From: a virus
Strand: one strand, 5' to 3'
DNA length: 46,215 nucleotides
IMG/VR virus record: IMGVR_UViG_3300010885_016948
Coordinates: 1 to 46,215 of that record
Shown in pieces: positions 2,973-45,557 of this stretch (position 1 is its first letter; each line of letters opens with the position of its first letter). The position numbers and the translations under genes were made by a program. The notes beneath the pieces were generated by a model, which worked only from the letters and a program-made list of their open reading frames with translations, ran no database searches and was not told the origin of the DNA.

Positions 2973-3154
2973 CGTTTATCTTTACGATGAGATGGTCTAG
3001 TCATCAATTTTTTCATATATTCAGGAGTGATAGTGCCGCCACCTATTGGACTAGCACTATCATTAGCAACTGGATTGTTACTACTTTCTTTGTAAGGTTG
3101 CTGAAAACGAAGTTTGTGTTCAGCTTCTGTCAAGTACTCCTGAAAAGATTTCAT
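2969..3154 (-). CDS. Small probable internal head protein with capsid-targeting-like N-terminus
   Basis: The 61-aa protein begins MKSFQEYLTEA. This closely resembles the capsid-targeting peptide of T4 internal protein III (MKTYQEFIAEA from memory). It contains an L-T-E/A site fitting the gp21 prohead protease rule (L/I)xE/(A/G). Cleavage after residue 10 would leave a basic, proline/serine-containing peptide of about 51 aa (ends HRKDKR). The start overlaps the stop of the upstream 658-aa gene by 4 nt, and the stop overlaps the next ATG. The role as a packaged internal protein is inferred from the N-terminus and from two neighbours with similar starts. No homologue is recalled for the rest. 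Confidence 0.65.
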   Translation of the reverse strand: MKSFQEYLTEAEHKLRFQQPYKESSNNPVANDSASPIGGGTITPEYMKKLMTRPSHRKDKR

Positions 3155-5127
3155 TTTTTGATTTTATGAGTAGTGACATTGCCTTTCCATGCTGGTAGCT
3201 TAATGTCATTTGATTTAGTTGCTTTCTTTTCAGCAGATGGTTTCGCATCATTAGAGGCATCATCTGATTTATCTAAGTAGCCATGTCCCTTAGGTCCAGC
3301 CTTATGTATTTGTCCAGCCTTAGTAGTAATTATCTTACCACCTTTAGAAGTCTTGGAGACATCACCAATTTCATTCACCAGTTTAATGCTATCAAGTTCT
3401 TCCATCAAACGCTTTTCAATGCGTTGGAGTTCAAGTGATTCAGCAGTAGCTAATGAACGAGCTAATGGATTAGCAGCAGGATTTGCAGTGGCAGGATCTT
3501 GCTTCTTCATTCTGTTTAAATCATTACCTTGTTGCAATTGAGTTGACACAGGTTGAATTTCTGGTTGTGGTTCATTTGCATATTCTTCTTCCATTGAAAC
3601 TTGAATTTCTGGCTCATGGTATTCTGCAGAACCACCAGCCATACCAGCTAGTTTTAGTATTTGAGCTAATTGTTCTGCTGCTTCACCTTGTGCAGTGACA
3701 GTAAGACTTTTGCTACCGGTTTGGGTATCAAGATTGCTACTGATGTTCATTCCTGATTCTTGGTCAGGCCTTACTTGGCCGTCCATTGCTTGATCCCAGC
3801 ATTCTTCCAGTGATTCATTTGATTTAGCATCCTTGCTACGCTTCCAAGCAGTTGAGTATAGAACACTCATGCCTTTATGTTTACCATATTGTTTCATAAA
3901 GCGTTCTTTGTTGGACTTAATCCAATCTTCTTGTCCAGGAGCAGCAACTTCATCAACCATCTCTTCTTCATTGATGCTTTCTTCAACTTCTTTACCTGGA
4001 GCACCTAAGGCCTGTGCAGCTTGTTGTGCTAATTCCATAGTAGGGAAGTCAATACCATAATATACCCGGCCGCCATCCATGCCACCCGATGCACCCCTAT
4101 GCCAACCTTGTGCCGCTAATTGCGGATTAATTTTTTGTAGTTTTGCCATTACTTTTTCGCCAGCGCGGTCGTTGCCATCTATTTCCAATCGGCCCCTATT
4201 GACCCGGTCCGGCGACATGGAGTTAATATAAGGTTGCACTACCCGAAATTTTGGCATACCGAATCCTAAAAAGCTCTCCTCCATAGCACCATTTTGTTTA
4301 CCTGGAGCACCTAAGGCCTGTGCGGCTTGTTGTGCTAATTCCATAGTAGGGAAGTTAATACCATAATATACCCGGCCGCCATCCATCCCACCCGATGCAC
4401 CCGAATGCCAACCTTGTGCCGCTAATTGCGGATTAATTTTTTGTAGTTTTGCCATTACTTTTTCACCGGCGGCTTCGTTGCCAGTTATTTCCAATCGGCC
4501 TACGTTGACCCGGTCCGGCGACATCGAGTGATTATAAGGTTGCACTACCCGAAATTTTGGCATACCGAATCCTAAAAAGCTCTCATCCATAGCACCATTT
4601 TGTTGAACACCACCCGTTACTATTGGATCTCTAGCGTTTTTAATTAGATAATTTAAAAACTCGGTGAAATACATAGGATTTGTTGCCGTAGTATACATAT
4701 CTTTTGGATTGCCCATTGGGCCGCTTTTACCGGTTATTCCCTTTTGCTTGATATTTAATTCAATGCCACCTACTTGTAAGTTACTAACTTGTGCTTCTAA
4801 TCTAGGATCTCGTAGCCATTCTGAAGCCTTATGTTTTTCAAACCCTTCATCTTTGCCTTCCGCCACATCTCGGGATTTCAATCCTATCTGATTCAAGCCG
4901 TGCGGTAGAGGTTCTAAACAGGTTGGGCACTCGTTATCGTTAGCTGCCCAATCTCGCACTTTGTTTGCAATGCCACAGTGTGGACATTTGTAGCTAGCGA
5001 GATGTTCCATACCTAGTGGTACCTCCTTACTATACATAGTAGGTATTTGTGCCTCAGTGAGAATATTTTGATCAGTTTGTTTAGGTTCAATTTCTGATAA
5101 CAGTTTTAAAATTTTAGAGAAGTCCAT
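3151..5127 (-). CDS. Large head-associated structural protein with zinc ribbon and tandem duplication
   Basis: I chose the ATG at 5127 (658 aa). The longer reading from 5175 begins with TTG and overlaps the upstream gene, whereas the ATG at 5127 is 1 nt past the upstream stop and follows AAAGAAAG. From that ATG the protein starts MDFSKILKLLSE and has a prohead-protease-like L-T-E/A site at residues 23-26. A CPHC...CPTC four-cysteine zinc ribbon lies at about residues 48-70. Residues 176-277 and 278-379 are near-identical 102-aa tandem copies (ESFLGFGMPKFRVVQPY...). The stretch EDWIKSNKERFMKQYGK follows, then a long acidic, Q/P-rich, low-complexity region and a lysine-rich C-terminus. Context and N-terminus suggest a prohead core or internal protein. 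The exact role is unknown. Confidence 0.8.
   Translation of the reverse strand: MDFSKILKLLSEIEPKQTDQNILTEAQIPTMYSKEVPLGMEHLASYKCPHCGIANKVRDWAANDNECPTCLEPLPHGLNQIGLKSRDVAEGKDEGFEKHKASEWLRDPRLEAQVSNLQVGGIELNIKQKGITGKSGPMGNPKDMYTTATNPMYFTEFLNYLIKNARDPIVTGGVQQNGAMDESFLGFGMPKFRVVQPYNHSMSPDRVNVGRLEITGNEAAGEKVMAKLQKINPQLAAQGWHSGASGGMDGGRVYYGINFPTMELAQQAAQALGAPGKQNGAMEESFLGFGMPKFRVVQPYINSMSPDRVNRGRLEIDGNDRAGEKVMAKLQKINPQLAAQGWHRGASGGMDGGRVYYGIDFPTMELAQQAAQALGAPGKEVEESINEEEMVDEVAAPGQEDWIKSNKERFMKQYGKHKGMSVLYSTAWKRSKDAKSNESLEECWDQAMDGQVRPDQESGMNISSNLDTQTGSKSLTVTAQGEAAEQLAQILKLAGMAGGSAEYHEPEIQVSMEEEYANEPQPEIQPVSTQLQQGNDLNRMKKQDPATANPAANPLARSLATAESLELQRIEKRLMEELDSIKLVNEIGDVSKTSKGGKIITTKAGQIHKAGPKGHGYLDKSDDASNDAKPSAEKKATKSNDIKLPAWKGNVTTHKIKK
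3991..4602 (-). repeat. Two tandem 306-bp in-frame repeats
   Basis: The copies lie at 3991-4296 and 4297-4602 and keep the reading frame (102 codons each). By eye the encoded copies differ at only about nine residues, several clustered at charged surface-type positions (T/D, S/R, V/R, A/R). The high identity points to a recent duplication. Confidence 0.92.
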
Positions 5128-5128
5128 T

Positions 5129-5710
5129 TTATTTCTTTCTTTTTGTTGTGGGGATAGAATTTTGATAACTGCCAACTGGACTTATTTTTCCTTGAGGCGG
5201 TGGAGTATTGACCGGAGCAGCTTCTGTTGCAGCGAATTCATATTTGCGTGACACAAGTTCTTTGAGCATACTATCTTTACGCTGTTGTCCAACAAGTGCT
5301 TGTGCATCTGCTATATCTTCTAGTTCAGCTTGTGTTAGCACGGAACCATTTTTATCTTTCTTTGATGGTAATGCCGGAGTACGAAGCATATCTTCATTCT
5401 TTGTACGAACTAATACACTATTGCGTGGAAGATTTAACTTTTCTGCTACGACCTGTAGTACCTGATCACTAGTAGTTGGATACTTCAATGCTACCTCAAT
5501 GATATGGCATTCACATGGACCGATAGTTGGGAAATCAATATGCTCTTGTACTGGTAAGCGGCGAGGTTTTCCTACTGATTCAACTGAATAAGCAGACAGC
5601 GCAGTAGTTAGTTGTTCGCTGATTTTTGTATCAACATCACATCCGGCTAACCTGATACTGAACTCGTATACCTTGTTCATTTCTTGTAAATATTGAGTGA
5701 ATGGTTTCAT
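5129..5710 (-). CDS. Conserved phage structural protein with capsid-targeting-like N-terminus
   Basis: The 193-aa protein starts MKPFTQYLQEMNKVYEF. The first ten residues have the aromatic/hydrophobic spacing of T4 capsid-targeting peptides and an L-Q-E site, though the residue after it is M, not A or G. The body (residues 12-105) looks like a compact alpha/beta domain with a CECHIIEVALKYPTTSDQV stretch, and the C-terminus is lysine-rich. From memory, similar proteins occur in T4-like aquatic phages without an assigned function. It has its own late-type octamer (5731-5738) and an AGGA Shine-Dalgarno. The stop is 1 nt from the next ATG. A head or prohead role is inferred from context. Confidence 0.75.
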   Translation of the reverse strand: MKPFTQYLQEMNKVYEFSIRLAGCDVDTKISEQLTTALSAYSVESVGKPRRLPVQEHIDFPTIGPCECHIIEVALKYPTTSDQVLQVVAEKLNLPRNSVLVRTKNEDMLRTPALPSKKDKNGSVLTQAELEDIADAQALVGQQRKDSMLKELVSRKYEFAATEAAPVNTPPPQGKISPVGSYQNSIPTTKRKK

Positions 5711-7801: not shown

Positions 7802-8169
7802 GGAAGTATCATTCTGGAAACATATTTACTAACGGTAGGGTTATTGTTTATACCAAGGTAACTAGTACCAACTCTGTTTAAATTTAAAAACTTTACTAGA
7901 TAGGAAGTAAGCTCAGGCTTCTGTAATCTAGCAAATTTTGCTAGTGTTGACATTGGATCAATATTTTGTGAAATACTTGTATAAATCACTGCACTAGCTA
8001 TTAACCTGGCGGCTTCTTTAGAATCAGCTATTTGTTCCAAAAATCCTATAACGGCAGCATCTATATTTGGTGATACAATAAAGTTTGGTTTAAAATAGTT
8101 ATTAAAAAATGTTTGAGTACTGACTGTTGAGTTAAGATTTATTGGTGATAAGTTATTGGTTGTACTCAT
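7798..8169 (-). CDS. Conserved virion structural protein, 123 aa
   Basis: The helical protein has the middle IDAAVIGFLEQIADSKEAARLIASAVIYTSISQNIDPMSTL and the end LTSYLVKFLNLNRVGTSYLGINNNPTVSKYVSRMIL. From memory this pattern occurs in small structural proteins of cyanophage-like T4 relatives near the tail-tube genes. It overlaps both neighbours by 4 nt (start inside the end of the 526-aa gene, stop over the gp4 start), so the three are a coupled unit. No enzymatic motif is seen. The exact position in the virion is unknown. Confidence 0.75.
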   Translation of the reverse strand: MSTTNNLSPINLNSTVSTQTFFNNYFKPNFIVSPNIDAAVIGFLEQIADSKEAARLIASAVIYTSISQNIDPMSTLAKFARLQKPELTSYLVKFLNLNRVGTSYLGINNNPTVSKYVSRMILP

Positions 8170-9746
8170 TGATATCCTCCAGCCGCATCTACTTCAGCTT
8201 TAGTTGTTTGTATTTTAGTAACAAGCCCTGATTTAATTGCAGTATAATCCGCAATAAGTCCTTGTTGATCTGATTTTGTATCTGCCAAATGTGTCAACTG
8301 TTGATTTAGTTGTGAAACCAATGCTTGTTTTCCTGGATTAGAATCTGATAATGCCAATGCTGCTTGATATTGAGTATTAATTTGAGAAATTGTGATAGTG
8401 GTATTTTCTATTGAATTTGATAGATTAGTTAACCCAGTCTCTGTTCTAGAAAGATCATTATTCAGTTGGGTGAGATTATACTGAATATCACTGCCTCTAT
8501 TAGTATTAATTGACCCTTGATTTTGGTCAGCAGATGATGCTGTTTTTCTATCATTTGCTGTTACTAATACCTCAGTGCTATTTGGACTAATTTCATCTGG
8601 CATCATAGGATTATAATTACTTGGAGCCCTAGCAAGTCGTTCTTGTTCAGCTACTGCCTCATTAACTCCAGTAGCATCATCTTGTTGATATCCGGAATTT
8701 CTAAATACTGCTTGATCAACCCCAGTAGCGTCATCTACAAATGAATTTCTAAATACTGCTTGATCAACCCCAGTAGCGTCATCTTGTGGCTTATAAAAAG
8801 AATTAATACCTCCGGTATTTTTAAATATAGCATCATCAACTCCGTCAGCATTAGAATCTGCATCATTTGGTACAATATATGGATAAGAAGAAGTAGCCGA
8901 CCCGAATGAAGGGTCTATTACTTCATTCATAGGATTAGCTGGAGGAATAGTTTGTGAGGCTTTATTAAATGCACTAAATGAACTCCCTTGTCCCAATGTA
9001 TGTACCATATCACTTGCATTAACAAATGGTACTTTTCCTCTCAGTGGACTTGCAGTTTTATCATAATGTAACTGCGCAAATCCCTTAACAGTATTACTAG
9101 ACACATCTCCGTAATTATATAACACAGATTCATATTCAATAGTCATGTCATGAGTCAATAGTGAGTCACCGTCTTGGGCATGCTGCCCATGTCTGAAACT
9201 TCTTATTAGTGGATTTATTAAAACATATTCACTGAATTTTTTATGATGTAAACTATATATACGGATAGATTTCAAATATGGAACTGATTTTCGGTTACGT
9301 GGTGTGAATCCCCAACCTGGAGTGAACTCACTGGTGGTATACTTGTGATCCTTGAAATATATTTCTTCACCATAATCTGCATCTCTATAATAATAATTAT
9401 AGTAATCAAACCAAAAATTTCTAATAATATCGGCACTATCGTCATGAAAAGATGCATTTATATTATCATATTTTATTTTTGATTGAACAATATTAGGCCT
9501 GTTATACGCATTATGTATTTTTGTTTCAATACTAAACTTAGGTAAATCAATTGACTTAACTAATAGTCCTATTTCTTCTTGATTATTTGGATTACTAGGG
9601 TCAGCCCTTTGTGCTTCAGTATTTATATCAAAAAATACATGAAATAAGAATCCAAATTTTGGAACCAAGTTAAAGTTATCCGCGACATATAATTGACTCG
9701 CGTGTTTATAATCACGAAGGATAGGATTGGTAATAGTAGTTGCCAT
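8166..9746 (-). CDS. Tail-tube-fold structural protein with repeat and coiled-coil C-terminus
   Basis: In this 526-aa protein, residues 1 to about 230 look like a tube or tube-cap fold (FGFLFHVFFDIN, LLVKSIDLPKFSIETK, SADIIRNFWFDYYNYYY, IRIYSLHHKKFSEYVLINPLIRSF, YESVLYNYGDV). This is reminiscent of gp19/gp54-type proteins. A linker rich in N, P and S follows, then 16-aa repeats (DDATGVDQAVFRNS) around residues 295-365, and a heptad-like coiled coil from about residue 430 to the end. The position just after gp19 supports a tube, baseplate or neck role. It has its own late-type octamer but no clear Shine-Dalgarno. It may be the gp54/gp48 counterpart, but I cannot decide which. Confidence 0.65.
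   Translation of the reverse strand: MATTITNPILRDYKHASQLYVADNFNLVPKFGFLFHVFFDINTEAQRADPSNPNNQEEIGLLVKSIDLPKFSIETKIHNAYNRPNIVQSKIKYDNINASFHDDSADIIRNFWFDYYNYYYRDADYGEEIYFKDHKYTTSEFTPGWGFTPRNRKSVPYLKSIRIYSLHHKKFSEYVLINPLIRSFRHGQHAQDGDSLLTHDMTIEYESVLYNYGDVSSNTVKGFAQLHYDKTASPLRGKVPFVNASDMVHTLGQGSSFSAFNKASQTIPPANPMNEVIDPSFGSATSSYPYIVPNDADSNADGVDDAIFKNTGGINSFYKPQDDATGVDQAVFRNSFVDDATGVDQAVFRNSGYQQDDATGVNEAVAEQERLARAPSNYNPMMPDEISPNSTEVLVTANDRKTASSADQNQGSINTNRGSDIQYNLTQLNNDLSRTETGLTNLSNSIENTTITISQINTQYQAALALSDSNPGKQALVSQLNQQLTHLADTKSDQQGLIADYTAIKSGLVTKIQTTKAEVDAAGGYQ
8656..8784 (-). repeat. 48-bp-period coding repeats with an identical 42-bp block
   Basis: Positions 8695-8736 and 8743-8784 are identical over 42 bp with a 48-bp period, encoding DDATGVDQAVFRNS units. 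A third diverged unit (DDATGVNEAV) lies at about 8656-8688, and a related NADGVDDAIFKN unit lies further along the minus-strand 5' side (about 8820-8860). Confidence 0.88.
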
Positions 9747-9818: not shown

Positions 9819-10436
9819 TTAAGTTGCAACATCATTAGTAGTGCGGAATAATGGAGCACCGACACCAGTACTTAGTGGGGTTTGTACTGCATTGTCAAAC
9901 ATCATAGTCAATGAGATTTGAACTGGATCATTGGAACTGTAGTTGACTTCATTGTAGTTAGCTTCTTTTAAATAGCAGCCGTATAGTTCCCAGCTTTCTA
10001 AAACTATAGGAGCATTTGCACCATTGCCACCATCTAGCATATCACAAAAAGTTGTGAATTTATAATCAATACCGCTTGATGCTGAACTTTGTTCCATGAA
10101 GTCAAATTGCTTCTGCAATTGTTGACCTACGAGACGGGAAACATTGCCAACTGCATCATCTCGCAATACTAAAGCTACTGAACCCCATTCTGGTTTACCA
10201 GCAAGTCTCACGATACTGTTATATACATGAACACTAATATCACCAAATGATAATGATGGCCGGGCAAAACTAACAACTTGCTTAGTAAGTTCAACTGTAT
10301 CAGAATCTACAGCGAATCCCGCAAAAGTTACTCTGAAACGATATCCCAACTTGGGCATTAACATACCCTGTGAGGTGGCACTTGCGCCGAATTCTGGTAA
10401 GGGTACTGTAAATTTTGTTAGCGATGCAACGGACAT
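9819..10436 (-). CDS. 19: Tail tube protein (T4 gp19-like)
   Basis: The 205-aa protein forms the inner tube of the contractile tail through which DNA passes. Conserved tube features are visible: the N-terminal strand after PKLGYRFRVTFAGF, ELTKQVVSFARPSLSF, KPEWGSVALVLRDD, and near the C-terminus SWELYGCYLKEANYNEVNYSSNDPVQISLTMMFDNA. The length is somewhat above T4 gp19 (163 aa). The ATG has a strong AGGAG Shine-Dalgarno and a GCTAAATA octamer upstream, and a hairpin terminator follows the stop. It is therefore a discrete high-output transcription unit, as expected for a major structural protein. Confidence 0.93.
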   Translation of the reverse strand: MSVASLTKFTVPLPEFGASATSQGMLMPKLGYRFRVTFAGFAVDSDTVELTKQVVSFARPSLSFGDISVHVYNSIVRLAGKPEWGSVALVLRDDAVGNVSRLVGQQLQKQFDFMEQSSASSGIDYKFTTFCDMLDGGNGANAPIVLESWELYGCYLKEANYNEVNYSSNDPVQISLTMMFDNAVQTPLSTGVGAPLFRTTNDVAT

Positions 10437-10569: not shown

Positions 10570-13500
10570 TTATGCGATACCTCTTGCGGCATCACCTGGA
10601 TTCCTCAAGCGAATTGGTAGGTAAATAAATTCTACGGTCTTCATCGGCTCAATTGCAATATCAATATACAATTCATTGCGAGCAATACGTGCAGAATCGT
10701 TATTGCTGGAATCACAAACTACTAAGTAGTCATAGATTCCGCGTTTAACAACTAAATCATTCAATAATTTTTCAACTACTTGTTTAGCTTGATCTCTGGT
10801 AACCTTATCATTGGGTTCAAACAAGAACCGGTTTGTTAACCCACGTAATACAACACGAAGATAATTTACTAAGCGAGCTACATTTACACGGTCCATTGAA
10901 CTAGTCTGTGCGCTACGAGTCTTTTGTCCGTATGCAACGGGACCAATTCCAGTTATCATTGTGATTGGATTAATATTCATTTCATACAACGTATCACGCA
11001 AATTATTATTAATTCCTGCACGAACGAATGATCCACTATCAGCATTTACATAACCGATATTCGTAGCATTATCAATTCTACCACGAGTAGTTCCTGCAGG
11101 AGCAAACCACTGATAACTAACATCATCACTATGCATGAATGTTCGCAACATCATATGGCTAGCTGGTACAGCGATTTCATTGCCACTTAGATCATTAGAT
11201 AATCCACTAGGATAATATAGACCAACATATTCATTTCCATTTCCATTTGTAGCATTGAAAGATGTTAATCTAGTACTATTTGCTGCCAATGTAATTGGAA
11301 GATCACCAATGATAAATCCAGTATTGGCACGATCACTGTTTAAAGCCATTAAGTTAGGAATTAATTCATTGTACCCTGGACAGACGATTAGATTAAAATT
11401 ATAACTTTCTTCTCTAACATCAGTGTTTGCATCTACTGCTGCTTTGAGAGCAGTTACTACTACTTGTCGTTGAGAATAATGACCCATATATGGTGAACCA
11501 TCATTTTTTAATCCAGTTGCAGATACCCATGTTGATTTTTGTGTTGGTAGAACACCACCAGGGAAAGAAATTTGATTGAAATAATTATTCATAAATTTCT
11601 TTACATTGTATCCACTACGACGAGTATTGAATAACAATGTACCACGTGGATACAATTGAGCTGGGGGTGCATCAAGATCAATATAATTACTTGTTTGCAA
11701 TGTTACAATATTAGGTAAAGCACCAGTGATAGGATCAACACCTGTACCATCGTCCCATCGTGCATCTGCAAAGACTATACCATTTTGACTTTCTCTATCG
11801 GTATTATCAATCAACGCCCACGTATTGATTGCAGTACGACGATATAGTCTTGGATAGTTATCCAAATCACCACTATCAAGCCACAAGTCACCTGGTACTA
11901 ATGCAGTATTATCACTTTGTACAGTAGGCTCAGTTGGTGTTACAATAACACCGATTGGATCTGTTGCACCTAGATTATATCCGCGTGAATCATTGGCTAT
12001 ATTTTTGTATCCTTTCCATCCAATAGAATCAGAAATCATGATATCAACTGATAAAGCATCACTATAATACCATAATGTTTCATCTTCTGGCGCGATAGAT
12101 GGTTCACTGTCACTATATGTATATGGTATTACAGGTGCCCAATTGGTTAAATTAATCAATCCTGGAACAATGTTAGGTGATACACCTGGAGTTGAAGTTG
12201 TAAATCCAGCAATAGTAACTGGATTACGACCTCCACCGGAAGTATTCATCATATTGATAATACCACCAGCACGATGAGTTATTGTTATTAATCCGCTGGT
12301 CTCAACTTGTGCAGTAACATTGGGAATATTAGCATTCACAATTGATGTTACGAATGCAGCAGGAGTTGTGCCTTGAATATTCGCAGTAATCGATGTAGGA
12401 ACAGCAGACTCAATGGTAGATACTGTTAAACTGAAAGTATCAGATACAGTGAATGCACCTGTAACTGCAGTACCTGTTACTTTAGTTTGTCCAGCAGTGG
12501 ATAATTTATAAAATTTAAAGCTAACAACTCCGTCATTGAGAACATTATACTTTACAAAAATAGATCCTACACTGATTCCTGACCCGCCGCCATTTTTATC
12601 TAAATCATAGATAGCAGTATAGCCAGAAGCGTATAGTGGGGTAGCTAAAGTATTCCATGAAACTGTTTCAGAATTATATTGCTTTAGAACTAAATTAACA
12701 CCAGAACTTTGTGCAGTTGTTTTAATCCAAACACTACCTGATGGTCTAGGAGCCTCATCAGTGAAAGACCACTCTGGTACTTGTGTGAATGGACCGTATT
12801 CTATTGTTGCACGATAGTAAGTATTTGATGGTATACCTATTGCTGTTAATGGTGCATTAGTACCGTTAACAATAACGCATGTTCCATTTGCTGGTAGTAC
12901 TTCTGTCGCTGTACCTGAATTTGTTCCAGGACCAGTTGCAGTGAATACAGTTCCGAGTTCATTATCGGCTGAACCAATTAAAGTGAAATCAGTTGTAGCG
13001 CCTGCATATACAGCACCGTAACCAGTACCGGGACCAGATGCAGTGAATACAGTACCGATATTGTTTGACGCAGCGCCAAAAGCAGTGAAATTTGTACTAA
13101 TAGTTGCTACCCCAGAACCAATACCAGTACCAGTTCCATTTGCAACAAATGTTGTACCAATATTACCATTTGCAGCACCCAATGCGACCCAATTTGTGTT
13201 ACCTGGTGCAGCAATGGTATAACTCCATCCGCTTACCAGATTAGTAGCAGTCACATTAGATACTGGACGAGAAGCGATTGTATATTGTACTCCATTAACC
13301 ATGTTAGCTGCACTTACAGTTGCGCCTGATCCAATACTAACAATAGTGTACTGAGTATCAGTAACAAAAGCACCTGCAGTGACTAGGTCACCTGCTGTAC
13401 TACCTGCTAATGAAGAAGCATATATTGCTAAACGACCATTAACATTTGCTGCAGTTATGCCAGTTATGGGAGCATTATTGATTAAAGTTACAAGAGCGTC

Positions 13501-14256
13501 AACTGTAGTTATTGGTGCTATTAATGAGAAAGCATAGTCATTGATAGTAAAAGTGCTACCACTTGCCATAGAGATAAGTGATGTTGTACCATTGGCTACT
13601 GATATGATATCTGCCCATGCAGAACTACCTAGCTTTACCCAAGTACCAGCCGATGTCTTATAAAAAACAGTATTACTATTTTCTAATACTACAACAGCGT
13701 AATTTCCTATCTCGCCATAAGAATCCTCAGGTACATAGGAAATTGTATTTATTACATCATCTACCGAAGAAACAATTAATGGTGTAACTTTAACAAAGGT
13801 GTTTGATATACTATTGTATTCAAACAAACCAAAACTACTAGCATCAGTATCAAACCATAAAGTTCCGTTAGGACTTCTAGCTACTGGGCGTGTTGAACCA
13901 CTAGCTAGCTGAGCTAAATCAATATCAGCACGAATAACCCATACTCTGTTTCCAAGTCCTAATGCACTATATGCGGCCATTAGACCATATTCATTAATTT
14001 CATCACCATGTGATGGGGTACCAGTTACACTTCGATTGAAATTAGGCAGTCCATACATAGATGATAGTTCACGCTGACTGGACATTCCATATATCTTTCC
14101 AGCATTTGCTTTCAATGTTCCTGCAGCAATTGTATTGTTAATAACTTTATTTTCGGCAGTGGCTAACAATACAAAAGGTACTGTGCCAATAGCGGATGGT
14201 AAATATTGACTTTCATCAATGACTGTAATTTCTATTCCTGGGGATACTAATGCCAT
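10570..14256 (-). CDS. 18: Giant tail sheath protein (T4 gp18-like) with large inserted region
   Basis: This is the contractile sheath subunit. The N-terminus (SPGIEITVIDESQY, SAIGTVPFVLLATAENK, YGLMAAYSALGLGNRVWVIRADI) and the last 400 residues (NYFNQISFPGGVLP, VVVTALKAAVD, FNLIVCPGYNELIPNLMALN, PNDKVTRDQAKQVVEKLLNDLVVKRGIYDYLVVCD, AIEPMKTVEFIYLPIRLR) match gp18. At 1228 aa it is nearly twice T4 gp18 (659 aa). The excess is an insertion of very roughly residues 130-830. The insertion carries tryptophan modules like those of the fibres (LWFDTDASSFGLFEYN, GDLWLDSGDLDNYPRLYRR), repeated FTAFGAASNNIGTVFTA units (about 350-450) and other beta-rich pieces. These probably project outward from the sheath. 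The ATG has a good AAAGGA Shine-Dalgarno. Confidence 0.92.
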   Translation of the reverse strand: MALVSPGIEITVIDESQYLPSAIGTVPFVLLATAENKVINNTIAAGTLKANAGKIYGMSSQRELSSMYGLPNFNRSVTGTPSHGDEINEYGLMAAYSALGLGNRVWVIRADIDLAQLASGSTRPVARSPNGTLWFDTDASSFGLFEYNSISNTFVKVTPLIVSSVDDVINTISYVPEDSYGEIGNYAVVVLENSNTVFYKTSAGTWVKLGSSAWADIISVANGTTSLISMASGSTFTINDYAFSLIAPITTVDALVTLINNAPITGITAANVNGRLAIYASSLAGSTAGDLVTAGAFVTDTQYTIVSIGSGATVSAANMVNGVQYTIASRPVSNVTATNLVSGWSYTIAAPGNTNWVALGAANGNIGTTFVANGTGTGIGSGVATISTNFTAFGAASNNIGTVFTASGPGTGYGAVYAGATTDFTLIGSADNELGTVFTATGPGTNSGTATEVLPANGTCVIVNGTNAPLTAIGIPSNTYYRATIEYGPFTQVPEWSFTDEAPRPSGSVWIKTTAQSSGVNLVLKQYNSETVSWNTLATPLYASGYTAIYDLDKNGGGSGISVGSIFVKYNVLNDGVVSFKFYKLSTAGQTKVTGTAVTGAFTVSDTFSLTVSTIESAVPTSITANIQGTTPAAFVTSIVNANIPNVTAQVETSGLITITHRAGGIINMMNTSGGGRNPVTIAGFTTSTPGVSPNIVPGLINLTNWAPVIPYTYSDSEPSIAPEDETLWYYSDALSVDIMISDSIGWKGYKNIANDSRGYNLGATDPIGVIVTPTEPTVQSDNTALVPGDLWLDSGDLDNYPRLYRRTAINTWALIDNTDRESQNGIVFADARWDDGTGVDPITGALPNIVTLQTSNYIDLDAPPAQLYPRGTLLFNTRRSGYNVKKFMNNYFNQISFPGGVLPTQKSTWVSATGLKNDGSPYMGHYSQRQVVVTALKAAVDANTDVREESYNFNLIVCPGYNELIPNLMALNSDRANTGFIIGDLPITLAANSTRLTSFNATNGNGNEYVGLYYPSGLSNDLSGNEIAVPASHMMLRTFMHSDDVSYQWFAPAGTTRGRIDNATNIGYVNADSGSFVRAGINNNLRDTLYEMNINPITMITGIGPVAYGQKTRSAQTSSMDRVNVARLVNYLRVVLRGLTNRFLFEPNDKVTRDQAKQVVEKLLNDLVVKRGIYDYLVVCDSSNNDSARIARNELYIDIAIEPMKTVEFIYLPIRLRNPGDAARGIA
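12905..13210 (-). repeat. Tandem repeats encoding FT(A/L)xGAAxNxxGTVFTAxGPGTG
   Basis: Three diverged copies with a period of roughly 100 nt lie inside the sheath insertion (about residues 350-450): WVALGAANGNIGTTF, FTAFGAASNNIGTVF and FTLIGSADNELGTVF, each followed by a GTGxGxGT-type turn-rich segment. The unit type is known from other phage structural proteins. Confidence 0.8.
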
Positions 14257-14289: not shown

Positions 14290-14955
14290 TTATTTATTTT
14301 TTATCTCTAAAAAAGTATGGGTTGAAGGATTATAATGGTATTTAATTAAATTTTTAATCTGCCTATATAGATGATCTAGCTCACTATTATTATATAAAAC
14401 ATAATCAAAATGCACTGCGGCCCAACTATATTCACTTGCATGAACTTGTTGCTCATCAAGGAATTCTTTACTATCTGATGATGCACTATTCATATAAGTT
14501 ATTGCATGTGGCATCCATTCAGGCTCTGGTCCTCGCATTACTCTAATGCAAATACCACCTTGATTTCTAATCGCAGTGGCTTCATTTGTAAAGCGGACAT
14601 CACTAATTACAATATTGTCTTGTGTATTGCGTATTTTATTTTCTAAACTAGCAATCCAAATATCATCATGAAATCCATGCCGACAAACTTCAGTACCCCA
14701 ATATTGTAAAATCCAACGAGGAGTAAGATGAGGAATATTTAACCTGGTAGCCCACCAGGTATCAATTTGTTCTCTCCACTTTCTAGCCTCAGGAGTTTTT
14801 CCTTCTAGTAAAATTCGATCCCACCCAAACACTGAAGAAACTGCATCTTTAAGAGTACCTGCAAAAGATTCTCGTTTGAACCAATGCGAATTTACCAAAT
14901 AATCAGCAATGGTGTCTTTTCCGCTGCCGATTAAACCTGAAATTCCTACTATCAT
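14290..14955 (-). CDS. 1: Deoxynucleoside monophosphate kinase (T4 gp1-like)
   Basis: The enzyme phosphorylates dNMPs, in T4 including the modified dHMP, to supply phage DNA synthesis in the host cytoplasm. The P-loop GLIGSGKDT lies at residues 7-15. SFAGTLKDAVSSVFGW, the LTPRWILQYWGTEVCR block and IVISDVRFTNEA are family-typical, and the length of 221 aa is close to T4 gp1 (241 aa). It is a metabolic gene set between sheath and neck genes. It has a sigma70-like promoter (TTGACA-17-AATAAT) and a strong AGGAG Shine-Dalgarno rather than a late octamer. T4-like cyanophages often lack gp1, so its retention is notable. Whether this phage modifies its DNA cannot be told here. Confidence 0.9.
   Translation of the reverse strand: MIVGISGLIGSGKDTIADYLVNSHWFKRESFAGTLKDAVSSVFGWDRILLEGKTPEARKWREQIDTWWATRLNIPHLTPRWILQYWGTEVCRHGFHDDIWIASLENKIRNTQDNIVISDVRFTNEATAIRNQGGICIRVMRGPEPEWMPHAITYMNSASSDSKEFLDEQQVHASEYSWAAVHFDYVLYNNSELDHLYRQIKNLIKYHYNPSTHTFLEIKNK
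14291..14298 (-). promoter_or_regulatory. T4-late-like promoter octamer AATAAATA for tail sheath
   Basis: Minus-strand AATAAATAACT lies 35 nt before the sheath ATG, overlaps the stop of the dNMP kinase gene and is followed by an AAAGGA Shine-Dalgarno. Together with the terminator at 10531-10552 it frames the sheath gene as its own unit. Confidence 0.5.
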
Positions 14956-17506: not shown

Positions 17507-18592
17507 ATGGCCCGTTTAAGTTTATGGAAAGATGGCAGACATTCCAACGATTATAAATTCTTTGACCGTAGAATTTCAGAGATGTTTACTATCGGTGGTA
17601 CCGGAGTGCTAGTTCATAAGTATCTAGGTCCATTAAATCAGGGTGTTACTAATGATGCTACTCAACCACAATATCTAAATCAAAGTGAACAAAATATACA
17701 AGACTTATTACTATTAGAAAATCGTGATCGTAAATATGATACTAGTGTATATAGTATGCGAGGCATGTATCAAGTTAGTGATAATGATTTTGATTTAAGT
17801 CAATTTGGATTATTTTTACAAACTGGTACACTATTCATGACATTTCATATTAACGATATGATTGAAACTATCGGTCGTAGAATTATGAATGGTGATGTAT
17901 TGGAATTAGTACATTTAACTGATTATGATTCACTAGATCAAAGTGTACCTGTCGCTCTTAAACGATTCTTTGTTGTTGGTGATACTAGTAAAGCAAGTGA
18001 GGGGTATAGTCCAACTTGGTGGCCGCATTTGTGGAGGTGCAAAATAAACCCAATGGTAGATAGTCAAGAGTATAAGGATATATTAACTACCTTAACAATA
18101 AGTGATGCTGATCCAACTCCATTAAAAGATATTCTAAGTAGTTATAACAAATATATTGGTATAAATGAAGCGATACTTAATCAAGCTGAATCTGATGTTC
18201 CAGAAAGTGGCTATGATATGACAGTCCGTTATACATTTGATCCCAATGGTGAAACTCCTAATGCGAAAATTAAAGGTTATTTGAGTGCTGATGGTATACC
18301 ACCGAATGGTTTACCAGTAGAAGCTGGTATTAGTTTTCCAGATAATCCTGCAGAGGGGGATTATTGTTTACGATTAGATTATAGTCCTAATAGGTTGTTT
18401 AGATATGATGGTCGGCGCTGGCTCAAGATTGAAGATGTACAAAGAACTAACATTACTAATGGTGCTGATAATAATCTAACTCTTCGTAACAGTTTCATTA
18501 ATAATAGTAATACATTTATTGATCATAATCTTGAAGTTCAGCCAGAAAAACAAACCTTGAATACAATACTAAGACCTAAGGCTGATATATAA
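17507..18592 (+). CDS. 14: Neck protein (T4/cyanophage gp14-like)
   Basis: The 361-aa protein starts MARLSLWKDGRHSNDYKFFDRRISEMF and contains the gp14-like core: SQFGLFLQTGTLFMTFHINDMIE, RRIMNGDVLELVHL, VALKRFFVVGDTSKASEGYSPTWWPHLWRCK and DSQEYKDIL. In T4-like phages gp13 and gp14 form the neck disc that closes the portal and receives the tail. The C-terminal third (GYLSADGIPPNGLPVEAGISFPDNPAEGDYCLRLDYSPNRLFRYDGRRW) carries a tryptophan module like those in this phage's fibres. It has a strong AGAAGGA Shine-Dalgarno. The stop overlaps the next start by 1 nt (TAATG). The gene is on the plus strand, opposite gp13 and almost everything else here. Confidence 0.78.
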   Translation: MARLSLWKDGRHSNDYKFFDRRISEMFTIGGTGVLVHKYLGPLNQGVTNDATQPQYLNQSEQNIQDLLLLENRDRKYDTSVYSMRGMYQVSDNDFDLSQFGLFLQTGTLFMTFHINDMIETIGRRIMNGDVLELVHLTDYDSLDQSVPVALKRFFVVGDTSKASEGYSPTWWPHLWRCKINPMVDSQEYKDILTTLTISDADPTPLKDILSSYNKYIGINEAILNQAESDVPESGYDMTVRYTFDPNGETPNAKIKGYLSADGIPPNGLPVEAGISFPDNPAEGDYCLRLDYSPNRLFRYDGRRWLKIEDVQRTNITNGADNNLTLRNSFINNSNTFIDHNLEVQPEKQTLNTILRPKADI

Positions 18593-19974
18593 TGAATTCA
18601 TATTTTTATAGCGGACAGATTCGCCGATTCTTACAACAATTTATAAGGTTGATGAGTAACTTTCAAGTTCAATTAGGACAGGATCGTAATGGTACTAGTA
18701 GTTTATTAAGAGTCCCAGTATTTTATGGTGATGCTAGTAGGCAAGCTAGCCAGATTTTGAGAAATAATAGTGAAAATACATTATTAGGTGTGCCAGCAAT
18801 GGCTATATATATTACTGAATTTCGATATGATCGTAGTAGAGTACAAGAACCATTTCACGTAAGTAGTTTGAATGTCAGAGAGAGAGCATATAATCCGGTT
18901 ACTGGAGAGTTATCATCATCACAAGGTGATATTCTTACAGTTGAAAGATTAATGCCTATTCCGTATATCCTTACTCTTAAATGTGATATATGGACAAGTA
19001 ATACAGATCAAAAATTACAATTACTAGAACAAATATCAGTGTTATTTAATCCGTCTATGGAAATTCAAAGTACAGATAATAATATTGATTGGTCAAGTTT
19101 AAGTTATATTACATTGACTGATACTTCATTCACTAGTCGTTCAGTACCTTCAGGAGCTGATGATCAAATTGATATTGCTAGTTTGACATTTGAATTACCA
19201 ATATGGTTAAGTGCTCCTGCTAAAGTTAAGAAAATGGGAGTTATACAGCGTATTATTTCTTCTGTGTGGGATGATAATGGAATCATCGCAAGTGATATAT
19301 TTGATACCGGCAATGCTTCACCATTATCTAGGCAAATAGTTACTATTATGGGTTTCAATATAATATATCTTGGCAATACATTACAATTAATACAATCCAA
19401 TAATGAAACTACATTTGACCCTTCTGGGGTGACAGAAGAACCTCCTGCTGTATGGGAACTTGGTCTATCTAGATATGGATATGAATCTTTACGCAATGGC
19501 ATAAGTCAAATTAGATTAGAGCAAGACGATATTACCATAGTTGGTACAGTAGCGTATCATCCATCAAATGCAAGCTTATTGTTGTTTACTCCATTAGTTG
19601 ATACCTTGCCAGCTAATACATTAGATCCGGTAACTGCTATTATAAATCCACTAACTGTTGTAATTGATTCAGCATTATTAACTCCAGTTATTGGGACAAG
19701 ATTTTTAATATTACAGGATATTGGTTACCCGGGTGATGCAGAGGGACCTGTTCTTTGGAATAGACCAGGCTATCCTAAATTAGTAGCACAAGCAAATGAT
19801 ATCATTGAATATGATGGAACTCATTGGACCGTGAGTTTTACTAGTAGTGCTGTAAATACAGTGCAATATGTCACCAACCTAAGAACGATTACTCAATATA
19901 AATGGAAAGATCAACAATGGACAAAGGCAGTAGAAGGTCGGTATGGAGCAGGAGCATGGACTTTCGTCCCATAA
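18592..19974 (+). CDS. 15: Tail completion/sheath stabiliser protein (gp15-like), extended
   Basis: The first 230 or so residues fit gp15: FYSGQIRRFLQQFIRLMSNFQVQLG, LRVPVFYGDASRQASQIL, PAMAIYITEFRYDRSR, RLMPIPYILTLKCDIWTSNTDQKLQLLEQISVLFNPSMEIQ, and ELPIWLSAPAKVKKMGVIQRI. In T4, gp15 forms the hexameric ring at the head-proximal end of the tail. The length is 460 aa against 272 in T4. The extra C-terminal part (about 240-460) includes NDIIEYDGTHWTVSF and YKWKDQQWTKAVEGRYGAGAW, a segment type I recall from other aquatic phages. It is coupled to gp14 by TAATG. Its last codons overlap the NUDIX gene start. Confidence 0.82.
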   Translation: MNSYFYSGQIRRFLQQFIRLMSNFQVQLGQDRNGTSSLLRVPVFYGDASRQASQILRNNSENTLLGVPAMAIYITEFRYDRSRVQEPFHVSSLNVRERAYNPVTGELSSSQGDILTVERLMPIPYILTLKCDIWTSNTDQKLQLLEQISVLFNPSMEIQSTDNNIDWSSLSYITLTDTSFTSRSVPSGADDQIDIASLTFELPIWLSAPAKVKKMGVIQRIISSVWDDNGIIASDIFDTGNASPLSRQIVTIMGFNIIYLGNTLQLIQSNNETTFDPSGVTEEPPAVWELGLSRYGYESLRNGISQIRLEQDDITIVGTVAYHPSNASLLLFTPLVDTLPANTLDPVTAIINPLTVVIDSALLTPVIGTRFLILQDIGYPGDAEGPVLWNRPGYPKLVAQANDIIEYDGTHWTVSFTSSAVNTVQYVTNLRTITQYKWKDQQWTKAVEGRYGAGAWTFVP

Positions 19975-24676: not shown

Positions 24677-27600
24677 CTACAGTACTGGTAATGATGCCGA
24701 TGGTGGGACAAAAGCTGTAGTGTATCTTGCATATTTGGTTATTCTTAGATCGTCTATATAACCAACATATGTGGCAGCACCATCATTCCTTGCACCAATA
24801 CGAGTTTGAGTTGCTGTTGCAAAACTTGCCAATGTAAATGTGCCTGCGGCTATACCATTGACATAATAAGTTACTGTTGATGATCCTGCTACTCTTACTA
24901 AAGCAACGTGTGTCCAAGTGTTAACAGTAAGAGTTGCTGTTGATTGAGTTTGCAAAGTAGCAGTGGTATCATAAACTTGTAATTTACCACTTGAGTTTAT
25001 AAAAAATACCCAACCAGAACCACCTCTGGTTTCATAAATGCATAAATCTCCAGCTACAGAAGTTGGATAAATCCACGCTTCTAATGTAAATGCTTCTGAC
25101 CCCTGAATAGCTAGTAAAGAATTAGGGCTATTTAACCAATCCCCAGTACCGTCAAAGTACATAGCGCCTGTGCCGTATTTTTTAACTGCAGTGGATACTC
25201 TAACATCACCCACTGTTGTTAAAGTATTTTTACCAGTAGCATCTTGTATTCCAGTGTTTGTGCCGGATAATAGCAGAGCACTTGGTGTCGTTACGGTAGT
25301 AGAAACACCTGTTGCAAATGTATCAAATGTAATATTTCCACTTGTTATCCATGTGTATATACGATATCCACCAGCTATTGTAACATTCGCATTGGTGGTG
25401 GATAGTGCTGCTGGTGAATCTACTGAGTACCGAATAATTACTATTCCGGAACCACCAGTACCACCAGGACTACCATAAAATCCACCAGCAGTAGAGCCGC
25501 CACCCCCACCTCCCGTATTAGCAGTACCAGAAAAACCTGTCCCAGAGGAAGCGACACCTGCGCCGCCTCCCCCCGTACCACCAGCGCCTGCAGTACCGCC
25601 ATACGTTCCGGCACCCCCACCGCCACCATATACAGATGATGATCCAGCAATAGTGCTTGTATAACCTGCCCCGCCTGCCCCGCCAACTGAACTATTAGGA
25701 GCATCTCCACCTACCGCACTAGCACCTCCCCCGCCACCACCTGGATATGGCCCAGCACTGACCCCGCTGCCACCACGATTTCCAAGTTCAGGTGCAGTTG
25801 CAGATGACGATGAATATGCATTAGAGTTTCCATATCCTGCACCACCGCCTGACCCGCCTGAAGTAGATGCTATATGACTCGCTTGATCCCAACCACCACC
25901 TCGTCCACCACCTAGTGCTGTATATGTATGAAATGAAGAGTTAGTGCCTGATGCAGACGAAGATCCGCCACCTCCAACAATTATTGTATAACTTACATTA
26001 CTTGCCATAACCACTGATGCACCTGGTCGTACACCACCAGCACCACCACCTCCACCACCAGCACCATTGCCGCAATAACCACCAGACCCTCCACCTGCAA
26101 CAACCAAGAAATCAACACCTACTTGACTAACAGTAGTAACAGAGACAGATGCTGCCAATGGAGCAGTAGGTGGAGTGAAAGCTGAAGTATAAACTGCAAG
26201 ACCTTTAACTATACGGAGGTTAGAGAGGTAACCAGGGAAATAATAGATATAGCTACCGCCTCCTGGTGAATTATCAACTTTTCCAATCCAATAACTAAAA
26301 TTTGAATTAATAATATCGACCGTTACAGAAACACTACTTGCAACCCCACTTATATAAAGTTTAACAATGCCTCCACTACGAACTAATGCTAAGTGATTCC
26401 AGTTATTAAATGAAATTGTTTGAGTAGTTGTATAATTTGCTGCGTTCAAAGTTACATTTATTCTACCATTTAGCATTAATCCAATACTTAAATAAGGAAT
26501 CCAATTGTTAGTTCCAGTTTGAGATTGTAAAATGTTTGTATTGTCTGCCGCAGGAGCAGAAGTTGGATAAATCCAAGTTTCAATAGTCCAATCAGTTCCT
26601 GATAAGTTAATTGTGCCAGATACAGTAAGAGAATCAGATGTACCGTTGAAATACATACTACCACCTACTAGTGTAGTACTATAAGCTGCAGTTGGTGCAA
26701 ATGGAGAGAATGCTTGAATTTTTGGTGACCCTGACATTACGATGGCAAATGCATTAGCAGAGTTATCTTTGAAATAGTTATTCTGTAAAGTTAATAAAAC
26801 TGTTCCTGTTACAACAGTTGCGGGTGCTATTGGTGTTACAAATATATTTGCACCAGGAGTAATAGATGCTGTTTGGAAATAAGTAGGAATATTACCCACT
26901 ACCATCTGGATATTGCTAATATATCCATAGAATACCTGTCCATATGCATTCATTCCATATACACCAGGATAATTGCTATCGTAATATGACCCTATTCGTG
27001 TTGCGTAGTCACTTACACCATTAAAATTGGTAGTATTTGACCTCTGATTAATCAATCTTCCATTCAAAAAGATTCTTTCTATATTACTAGCATCTCTAGA
27101 AACAGCAATATGATTCCAAGAATTAAATAGTACTGGATAAGATACACTAGTCGTAACACCTGCACCGGTTAATCCCCAGTAGATAGTACCAGTAGTGGGA
27201 TCTATACCCATTGCCCAGAAAAGATTATTTGCATTATTACCTTGTGAAATTATACCATGTGTAGTATTACCAGACGCACTAGAATGTCCAGATAGTGGAT
27301 AGCAAAATGCTTGTATAAAATACTGACCTGTACCTAAAGCAAATGCACTATTTGACGCTAAATTAATATTTGTGCCTCCTACTCCATCAAAGTACCCACT
27401 CCACCCCGTTTGAGAGAAGGGAGTAAATGTACCTTGAGTTGGAGTACCACTTCTTGTAATTGTAAAGTTACTTGAAGAACTATCTCTGAATTGATTGTTA
27501 TTCTGTGATTGATTATTTTGTAATGTTAGTAATACTGTCTCTGTTCCAGTAAGTGCGGCTATATTTGTACCACTACTTTGAATTCTTGATAATGGGGCTG

Positions 27601-29005
27601 TAGGAGGTGTGAATGCTCCGGTGTATACTGCGGTATTATTAACTCTTAAATTAGATATATAGCCGGTAAAGACATTATTAGTATATGCATTATTAGATTT
27701 CAATGCGCCAATAACAAATGTGGAACCTGTATAACTTTGATTACCTATAACTGTTGGAGTTCCCACTGAAACTCCATTTACATAAAGATAAAAATAACCT
27801 CCGTTAACAACCCCGGCAACGTGAGTCCAAATGTTAGGTAATATTGTACCACCAAGTATTTCAATTGGAGCAAATGTATTTTTAAACCGTAATTGATTAG
27901 ACGCATTTACTGCAAATAACCAACCTTGTTCGATGTCTCCATCGGTATACGTATAATAACTAGCAATGTTTTTATATACTCCTGATGTGGTTGGATAAAC
28001 CCAAGCTTCTATGGTAAATCCAGTGCCACCATTGCCAGATAATTGAAATTTAGAATTATTAACTGGACCGACTAAGTAATCACTACTTCCATTAAACAAT
28101 CCACTCCCATAACCAGAATAAAGTGAGGGTAAGATAAAGGGCTGAGTTACGGATATACTTGGTGTTCCACTTGCGGTAATTGTTCGTGGTGTAGATGAGG
28201 TATCTATAAAGCTATTGCGTTGACCGGTTAACAAGCTTGTTGCTGTTCCAGTAATAGCAGCGATATTACCACTAGAACTTTGAGTTGCGGTCAATGGTGC
28301 AGTAGATGGAGTAAATGAGCCAGTATAGACTGCAGTGCCTTTAACTACCCTGAAATTTGAAATATAACCCGGCCAATTGGCAAACCCAGCAGTCGGTGCA
28401 ACTGCGCCAACATACATAGTAGCTGCGCTATTAAGATTCAGAACAGTAGTACTTGTTCCATATAATGTTCCATTTATAAATATACTAGAAGTACCGGATT
28501 GTCTAGATACTGCCACATGGGCCCAACTAGTTACGGGTATTACAGCACTAGTGCTAACTAATGTAGTAAATCTGCCACCGAAATATACAGTACCAGTAGC
28601 ACTTATACCCCAAACCCAATATGAATCATCATTACCTGCTCCTGCAATATAATTTCCACTAATAGCATTTCCTGGGGATACTGCATATGTGGCAGTTGCA
28701 TATATCCAAGCTTCAACAGTAAAGTCACCGGTGCCAAAAGTAAAATCCGCACTACTCGGAACACTCAAATAATCCGTGCTACCATTAAAGTACATACTAT
28801 AATAATCAGCTTGTAATGGGTTATTCTTATTAGCACTAGGTGCACCAAATGGATTTAATTCAAATTTATTTGTACTTGCATCATCAGTAAATGGAGTTAC
28901 ATCACCATTCAATAATAAAACTGTAGTATTAAAGTAGGGATCATTTGCGGCGATACCAACTCTTAGAGTTGTAATTAATACTGCTAAAGAAGTTAAATGA
29001 AGCAT
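24677..29005 (-). CDS. Giant LamG-domain and glycine-rich adhesin
   Basis: The 1442-aa protein is built mainly of concanavalin/LamG-like sandwiches. Signature stretches (YFNGSTDYLSVP, DFTVEAWIYA, SWAHVAVSRQSG, IFINGTLYG, GYISNFRVVKGTAVYTGSFTP) recur with the domains beginning near residues 68, 303, 538, 785 and 1282, giving five domains. Between the fourth and fifth lies a glycine-rich domain (about 968-1188; VDFLVVAGGGSGG to GIVIIRYS). LamG-type domains bind carbohydrate or protein ligands, so several binding sites per chain are expected. It lacks the FPxSP start of its neighbours. It begins MLHLTSLAV 1 nt after the stop of the 189-aa gene, suggesting coupling. It is probably a tail fibre or its distal part. 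No enzymatic motif is seen. Confidence 0.82.
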   Translation of the reverse strand: MLHLTSLAVLITTLRVGIAANDPYFNTTVLLLNGDVTPFTDDASTNKFELNPFGAPSANKNNPLQADYYSMYFNGSTDYLSVPSSADFTFGTGDFTVEAWIYATATYAVSPGNAISGNYIAGAGNDDSYWVWGISATGTVYFGGRFTTLVSTSAVIPVTSWAHVAVSRQSGTSSIFINGTLYGTSTTVLNLNSAATMYVGAVAPTAGFANWPGYISNFRVVKGTAVYTGSFTPSTAPLTATQSSSGNIAAITGTATSLLTGQRNSFIDTSSTPRTITASGTPSISVTQPFILPSLYSGYGSGLFNGSSDYLVGPVNNSKFQLSGNGGTGFTIEAWVYPTTSGVYKNIASYYTYTDGDIEQGWLFAVNASNQLRFKNTFAPIEILGGTILPNIWTHVAGVVNGGYFYLYVNGVSVGTPTVIGNQSYTGSTFVIGALKSNNAYTNNVFTGYISNLRVNNTAVYTGAFTPPTAPLSRIQSSGTNIAALTGTETVLLTLQNNQSQNNNQFRDSSSSNFTITRSGTPTQGTFTPFSQTGWSGYFDGVGGTNINLASNSAFALGTGQYFIQAFCYPLSGHSSASGNTTHGIISQGNNANNLFWAMGIDPTTGTIYWGLTGAGVTTSVSYPVLFNSWNHIAVSRDASNIERIFLNGRLINQRSNTTNFNGVSDYATRIGSYYDSNYPGVYGMNAYGQVFYGYISNIQMVVGNIPTYFQTASITPGANIFVTPIAPATVVTGTVLLTLQNNYFKDNSANAFAIVMSGSPKIQAFSPFAPTAAYSTTLVGGSMYFNGTSDSLTVSGTINLSGTDWTIETWIYPTSAPAADNTNILQSQTGTNNWIPYLSIGLMLNGRINVTLNAANYTTTQTISFNNWNHLALVRSGGIVKLYISGVASSVSVTVDIINSNFSYWIGKVDNSPGGGSYIYYFPGYLSNLRIVKGLAVYTSAFTPPTAPLAASVSVTTVSQVGVDFLVVAGGGSGGYCGNGAGGGGGGAGGVRPGASVVMASNVSYTIIVGGGGSSSASGTNSSFHTYTALGGGRGGGWDQASHIASTSGGSGGGAGYGNSNAYSSSSATAPELGNRGGSGVSAGPYPGGGGGGASAVGGDAPNSSVGGAGGAGYTSTIAGSSSVYGGGGGAGTYGGTAGAGGTGGGGAGVASSGTGFSGTANTGGGGGGSTAGGFYGSPGGTGGSGIVIIRYSVDSPAALSTTNANVTIAGGYRIYTWITSGNITFDTFATGVSTTVTTPSALLLSGTNTGIQDATGKNTLTTVGDVRVSTAVKKYGTGAMYFDGTGDWLNSPNSLLAIQGSEAFTLEAWIYPTSVAGDLCIYETRGGSGWVFFINSSGKLQVYDTTATLQTQSTATLTVNTWTHVALVRVAGSSTVTYYVNGIAAGTFTLASFATATQTRIGARNDGAATYVGYIDDLRITKYARYTTAFVPPSASLPVL

Positions 29006-33577: not shown

Positions 33578-33607
33578 TTTATTGATACCTATATCCGATT
33601 ATTACTA
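33573..33607 (-). repeat. Adhesin junction repeat J3
   Basis: A 35-bp junction between adhesin D and C. It differs from J1/J4/J5 by about two bases in the RYRYQ-coding part. Confidence 0.9.
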
Positions 33608-45527: not shown

Positions 45528-45557
45528 TTTATTGATACCTATATCTAATTATTACTA
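45523..45557 (-). repeat. Adhesin junction repeat J5
   Basis: A 35-bp junction between adhesin G (partial) and F, apparently identical to J1 and J4 although it lies 10-14 kb away. Confidence 0.9.

What the first reader, a model, noticed from the sequence alone, without database searches (positions are those of the whole stretch)
10570..14256. Tail sheath nearly twice the normal size with a roughly 700-aa insertion
Conserved gp18 N- and C-terminal parts flank an insertion of about residues 130-830 made of beta-rich modules. These include tryptophan modules like those in the fibre genes and a tandem GAAxNxxGTVFTA repeat. Each virion has over a hundred sheath subunits, so the tail would be densely decorated. 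The likely role is surface binding or shielding.
Basis: partly seen in the sequence, partly recalled or inferred. Interest (0 to 1): 0.62.

Follow-up and report, generated by a model that had tools for sequence, protein, structure and literature searches.

The report
Multi-domain sheath with nested surface module
This is the contractile tail-sheath protein of a large phage; its big size is normal for its lineage and already described in relatives, but part of the extra length is a small, uncatalogued surface module that several phage lineages have built into their virion proteins, here stacked inside copies of itself like Russian dolls.

Summary
In detail: 10570-14256(-) is one open frame of 1228 aa, a gp18-type sheath with conserved N- and C-terminal core and about 700 aa between. 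"Nearly twice normal" holds only against T4 (659 aa). In its own clade 62 intact relatives are 1013-1266 aa (median 1107), and published multi-domain sheaths reach 1283 aa. An assembly join is unlikely: L008 is colinear over 1224 aa, and overlapping contigs from other metagenomes match at about 93%. The tryptophan modules are real, ancestral to the whole family, and related to modules in the window's fibre genes. The GAAxNxxGTVFTA repeat is the new part. It is a ~48-aa module, absent from Pfam, PHROGs and NCBIfam and without a PDB fold match, carried by many unrelated virion proteins. Related sheaths took it up at three sites, in at least two separate events. In the window it forms halves N1-N2-[N3C3]-C2-C1, a nested arrangement, not a tandem one. 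Nested layouts recur in two other protein families, and no unpaired half occurs among 109 module ORFs except at a contig end. Surface decoration is supported by homology with T4-type sheaths. Binding versus stabilisation or shielding cannot be decided from sequence.

The parts
10570..14256 (-). tail sheath gene, 1228 aa (T4 gp18 type, multi-domain)
13876..14256 (-). residues 1-127, N-terminal sheath core
   Evidence: alignment with PAC2, 121Q, Atu_ph07, Phosso and others; AF2 pLDDT about 90 apart from 1-22
13759..13875 (-). Trp module T1, residues 128-166
13396..13749 (-). residues 170-287, outer host domain containing a beta-beta-alpha-beta-beta unit; carries the module array in the loop after it
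   Evidence: AF2 pLDDT about 85-92; alignments
13327..13383 (-). module half N1, residues 292-310 (model 1-19)
   Evidence: iE=1.8e-4
13270..13317 (-). module half N2, residues 314-329 (model 1-16; weak by HMM, 50% identical to N3)
   Evidence: iE=0.87
13105..13254 (-). complete inner module N3-C3, residues 335-384
   Evidence: iE=2.7e-12
13012..13098 (-). module half C2, residues 387-415 (model 19-47)
   Evidence: iE=1.9e-9
12904..12999 (-). module half C1, residues 420-451 (model 18-49)
   Evidence: iE=3.1e-12
12622..12750 (-). Trp module T2, residues 503-545
12274..12444 (-). second beta-beta-alpha-beta-beta unit, residues 605-661
   Evidence: AF2 secondary structure
11977..12099 (-). Trp module T3, residues 720-760
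11785..11910 (-). Trp module T4, residues 783-824
10573..11784 (-). residues 825-1228, C-terminal sheath core (PF17482 at 1117-1217)
9819..10436 (-). tail tube protein, next gene downstream (syntenic)
   Evidence: phrog_4542 E=2e-44
14290..14955 (-). deoxynucleoside monophosphate kinase, next gene upstream; same order in PAC2 and 121Q, near the sheath in Phosso

Best explanation
It is the contractile sheath subunit of a T4-like jumbo-type phage. SHOWN by homology and prediction: residues 1-127 and about 825-1228 form the conserved sheath core, and a chain of beta-rich domains, including four Trp modules ancestral to the family, is inserted where T4 gp18 carries its outer domains I and II. SHOWN by sequence: a ~48-aa phage-virion module sits in a loop of one of these domains in three paired copies whose halves are ordered N1 N2 [N3 C3] C2 C1. 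INFERRED: it was recruited once at this site and expanded by nesting, the outer copy N1-C1 being split after its first strand by N2-C2, which is itself split by N3-C3. INFERRED: as in other sheaths the inserted domains face outward, so about 100-150 copies per tail display them, and each nesting step lengthens the protrusion without touching the core. INFERRED, about 40%: the displayed modules give weak, multivalent, reversible contact with host-surface glycans or particles, sharing their module vocabulary with the tail fibres. Stabilisation or shielding is the alternative.
For: Family, Pfam and PDB matches. AF2 on 1-1200: mean pLDDT 78.6, all but 1-22 and 288-456 largely confident, with T4 gp18 the top Foldseek hit over about 680 columns. 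Trp modules invariant across the family and related to fibre-ORF modules. Module HMM E=3e-32 with halves complementary at model position 17-19. N1+C1 is closest to the general consensus (33/50), while N2C2 and M3 resemble each other more (26/48) and M3 matches the consensus least (20/50). Single intact modules in sister sheaths L012, L013 and L100, none in L014 or L016. Balanced nesting in unrelated carriers L128/129/132 and L185/186. The module folds at pLDDT 96-98 in L100, and the split falls in the loop after strand 1. Carriers include tail fibre, tail spike, tail appendage and other virion proteins.
Against: The array itself (288-456) is unmodelled in the window protein (pLDDT <50), so its nested fold is inferred. 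No structural match to a known carbohydrate-binding fold was found. N2 alone is not significant by HMM (iE 0.87). Half-by-half tandem duplication would give the same N-N-NC-C-C order. No ligand evidence exists.
Confidence: 0.6

Rival explanations
1. The extra domains stabilise or shield the tail rather than bind the host: outer domains of neighbouring subunits contact each other and cement the sheath, or give bulk against proteases and antibodies.
For: PMC9230969 proposes cementing as one role; phage 812 domain II touches a neighbouring subunit (cited there). The phiKp24 outer component is proposed to meet its neighbour only in the contracted state (PMC9700779). Large domains are universal in the clade, which suits a structural role.
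Against: The module array is lineage-specific, of variable copy number, and shared with fibre, spike and appendage-like proteins, which fits exposed variable elements better than load-bearing contacts.
Confidence: 0.35
2. The N-N-NC-C-C order arose by separate tandem duplications of a front half and a back half, so it is not a nested insertion of whole modules.
For: Regular periods (about 21 aa for N halves, 34 aa for C halves; DNA spacing of 102 nt) and closest similarity between neighbouring copies for the C halves suit slippage-type duplication.
Against: Equal numbers of N and C halves here and in two unrelated carriers, one of which (L185) has exactly one whole module inside one split module with non-repeating linkers; no ORF with an unpaired half except one cut by a contig end.
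Confidence: 0.3
3. Assembly artefact or fusion of two genes.
For: Only the unusual length by comparison with T4.
Against: Single open frame, colinear L008 (1224 aa, 76%), near-identical overlapping contigs L009/L010/L011/L015 and syntenic neighbours.
Confidence: 0.01

Closest known systems
Type 3 multi-domain phage tail sheath proteins (Evseev et al. 2022, PMC9230969), e.g. Atu_ph07 1086 aa, LacPavin_0818_WC45 1283 aa, Mad1_20_16 1248 aa
   Same: Split core with several beta-rich domains inserted between N- and C-terminal parts; large phages; length range
   Different: The ~48-aa module and its nesting were not seen in the parts of that paper read here; whether the 1248 and 1283-aa sheaths carry it was not tested
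RaK2-like/121Q-like jumbo phage sheaths (121Q 887 aa, phAPEC6, CBB) and Pseudomonas PA5oct group (PAC2, 879 aa)
   Same: Same sheath family by alignment, same Trp modules, dNMP kinase-sheath gene order in 121Q and PAC2
   Different: About 340-350 aa shorter; no module array. The tail 'hairs' of phAPEC6 are fibres at three positions along the tail, and in CBB the gene was not identified, so they are not evidence about this insert
T4 gp18 (659 aa)
   Same: Core fold and position of the inserted outer domains (domain I 98-188; domain II 88-97 and 189-345, as cited in PMC8570332)
   Different: The window protein is about 570 aa longer; different outer domains
Carbohydrate-binding modules decorating 936 lactococcal phage virions (PMC6669499; abstract only read)
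   Same: Idea of small recruited modules spread over the virion
   Different: Different phage type and modules; no fold relation shown here

Membership tests
Phage contractile tail sheath (gp18 family) | C-terminal sheath domain (PF17482) | tested here: met
   E=9.2e-12, 45.4 bits vs cut-off 26.9
Phage contractile tail sheath (gp18 family) | Core fold formed by N- and C-terminal parts, similar to solved sheaths | tested here: met
   Foldseek: T4 gp18 E=3.8e-14; P1, pyocin, AFP and PVC sheaths also
Phage contractile tail sheath (gp18 family) | Gene next to a tail tube gene | tested here: met
   9819-10436 is phrog_4542 tail tube E=2e-44
Phage contractile tail sheath (gp18 family) | Assembles into a contractile helical sheath | not testable with these tools
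   needs virions
Type 3 multi-domain sheath | Three or more domains, additional ones between N and C core parts | tested here: met
   AF2 domains and alignment; definition in PMC9230969
Type 3 multi-domain sheath | Additional domains often Ig-like beta-sandwiches | tested here: inconclusive
   Beta-rich with two beta-beta-alpha-beta-beta units; no Ig-family Pfam hit; no PDB match at E<=0.001 for the host domain with module
Known carbohydrate-binding module families | Profile or fold match to a known binding module | tested here: not met
   No Pfam or NCBIfam domain hit in the insert and no PDB fold hit at E<=0.001

The most novel reading that the evidence does not exclude
A ~48-aa, so far uncatalogued virion module moves between unrelated phage surface proteins and grows by inserting into its own first loop. 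Nested copies then form a graded protrusion that phages can lengthen stepwise, here on every sheath subunit, turning the whole tail shaft into an adhesive surface.
Probability: 0.2. Interest if true: 0.65.

Novelty: new variant of a known kind. Interest (0 to 1): 0.4.

Why it matters
It moves the finding from 'an odd giant sheath' to 'a normal giant sheath with a recruited and self-nested module'. Defining and solving it would annotate many virion proteins at once, and the nested copies give a simple test of how phages lengthen surface protrusions.

Tried and rejected
Fusion or assembly join: rejected by colinear relatives. Chance repeat: rejected (shuffled control). Orthology by position of the window's N1-C1 with the L012/L100 module: rejected; with modules removed the flanks show the window array before the strand TCVIVNGTNAP and the L100 module after the matching strand VCEIAAGTAS, about 20 aa apart (for L012 the alignment is less clear), so two sites. 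tblastn of the array against isolated phages: no match at 1e-3 for 151 aa; the canonical module finds S-TIM54 and two Manatee Spring phages. Literature search for the module's peptide strings: none. AF2 of the array in the window protein: failed for lack of alignment depth, so a single-module relative was used. Link of the insert to the CBB/phAPEC6 tail hairs: considered and not supported. The careful tree did not finish; the quick tree was used.

Full report
OBSERVATION. The gene at 10570-14256 (minus strand) is a single open frame of 1228 codons. It is a tail sheath: Pfam PF17482 at 1117-1217, phrog_10581 'tail sheath' E=8e-191, and T4/KP1 gp18 chains as the closest solved sequences. Its neighbours fit: a tail tube gene follows (9819-10436), and a deoxynucleoside monophosphate kinase precedes it, as in Pseudomonas phage PAC2 and coliphage 121Q. 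An assembly join is excluded for practical purposes: an independent contig (L008) encodes a colinear 1224-aa protein at 76% identity, and overlapping contigs from other metagenomes match at 92-93%.

SIZE IN CONTEXT. Against T4 (659 aa) the protein is 1.9 times larger. Against its own clade it is not an outlier. Of the IMG/VR relatives, 62 are intact and measure 1013-1266 aa, median 1107. Most of that set are the 80 best of at least 587 confirmed matches, so it leans towards full-length relatives of the query. Isolated relatives measure 879 (PAC2), 887 (121Q), 955 (Salicola SCTP-2), 990 (Vibrio 2.275.O), 1086 (Agrobacterium Atu_ph07) and 1091 aa (Sinorhizobium Phosso). A published survey modelled 112 sheaths with AlphaFold2, listed sheaths of 1248 and 1283 aa with five or more domains, and already proposed adhesion and stabilisation as roles (PMC9230969). 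The headline of the finding is therefore a known phenomenon.

ANATOMY. AlphaFold2 on residues 1-1200 with 74 aligned sequences gives mean pLDDT 78.6; almost everything is confident apart from 1-22 and 288-456. Foldseek returns T4 gp18 first, then other sheaths. Four Trp modules (about 128-166, 503-545, 720-760, 783-824) are ancestral: W134, W729, W747, W792 and W813 are invariant in 11 sheaths, including 121Q.

THE REPEAT. The GAAxNxxGTVFTA motif belongs to a ~48-aa module, consensus xxAGSFVxGxxYTIxxVGTTDFTxIGAxxNTVGVxFTATGxGSGTGTA. Carriers are diverse: among 39 scanned, 60 PHROG families were matched, such as tail fibre, tail spike, central tail fibre J, distal tail, internal virion, neck and sheath proteins. 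Neither Pfam, NCBIfam nor PHROGs showed a model for the module itself. In bacterial and archaeal genomes the scan found 13 loci, nearly all metagenome-assembled genomes. In a sheath relative with one intact copy (L100) the module is predicted at pLDDT 96-98. Foldseek finds it in predicted Caudovirales proteins (0.4 A over 44 columns in one) but has no PDB match at E<=0.001; the query was the host domain plus module, not the module alone.

NESTING. In the window sheath the module HMM hits as N1 292-310 (model 1-19), N2 314-329 (1-16, weak), a complete copy 335-384, C2 387-415 (19-47) and C1 420-451 (18-49). The halves are complementary, so the order reads N1 N2 [N3 C3] C2 C1. N1+C1 is the most canonical (33/50 to consensus); the inner copies resemble each other more and the consensus less. 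Among 109 module-bearing ORFs (overlapping loci counted apart), halves occur only in balanced layouts: this sheath clade, L128/129/132 (N FFF C F) and L185/186 (N F C). In this sheath clade the balance rests on counting the weak N2. The single lone half lies on a contig cut at that point. The split falls in the loop after the first strand of the predicted fold. Separate duplication of half-units cannot be excluded as the route, since it yields the same order.

HISTORY. In a quick maximum-likelihood tree of the C-terminal core, the nested sheaths (window, L008, L009, L011) and the single-module sheaths (L100, L012, L013) are two clades, each with support 99; their exact relation to L017 is unresolved. 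L115, with a module in a different domain (about 482-532), lies elsewhere. With modules removed, the window array and the L100 module sit at different points of the same small domain, about 20 aa apart. This means at least two recruitments of the module into sheaths, probably three. L014 and L016 and the other sheaths scanned lack it.

MECHANISM. Shown: one open frame, conserved core, outer domains inserted at the T4 domain I/II position, and the module copies with their layout. From published work: additional sheath domains lie away from the tube (PMC9230969), and a related tail has 25 hexameric rings, i.e. 150 subunits (PMC7247149). Inferred: the array projects from the shaft in every subunit. 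Function is not decided. Weak multivalent adhesion (about 40%) is favoured because the modules are shared with fibre- and spike-type proteins and vary in number; cementing or shielding (about 35%) is the main rival.

VERDICT. Its claim of unusual size is reduced to ordinary for the clade; its interpretation is partly supported; the repeat turns out to be the more interesting part.

Noticed in passing
window 8166-9746 (-): 526-aa ORF with an N-terminal tail-tube-like region (phrog_13438 E=2e-7, phrog_4542 E=1e-5) and a C-terminal extension holding a 48-bp repeat (8652-8787, DDATGVDQAVFRNS); perhaps a tube paralogue or gp54-like initiator.
   Followed up: no
window 3991-4604: 306-bp tandem duplication, 2 copies at 93%, inside the 674-aa ORF 3151-5175, which has no Pfam or PHROG match.
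   Followed up: no
window 29999-31087, 33579-34976, 44415-45527, 45529-46197: Several ORFs match the same family phrog_2295 over overlapping ranges, as does part of 24677-29005: an expanded set of paralogous virion/fibre proteins, one of them (33579-34976) with the short Trp module.
   Followed up: partly
window 24677-29005 (-): 1442-aa baseplate-wedge-type protein, matching baseplate wedge and virion structural PHROG families.
   Followed up: no
L115:2555-6295: A 1247-aa sheath of another clade with one intact copy of the ~48-aa module at about 482-532, in a different domain: separate recruitment.
   Followed up: partly
L185:3951-5510 and L128:2939-5164: Phage proteins without PHROG match that carry the module nested in itself (N-F-C and N-FFF-C-F), independent of the sheath.
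   Followed up: partly
window 18592-19974 (+): 460-aa ORF on the opposite strand matching phrog_11196 (tail sheath) and phrog_227 (tail sheath stabilizer).
   Followed up: no
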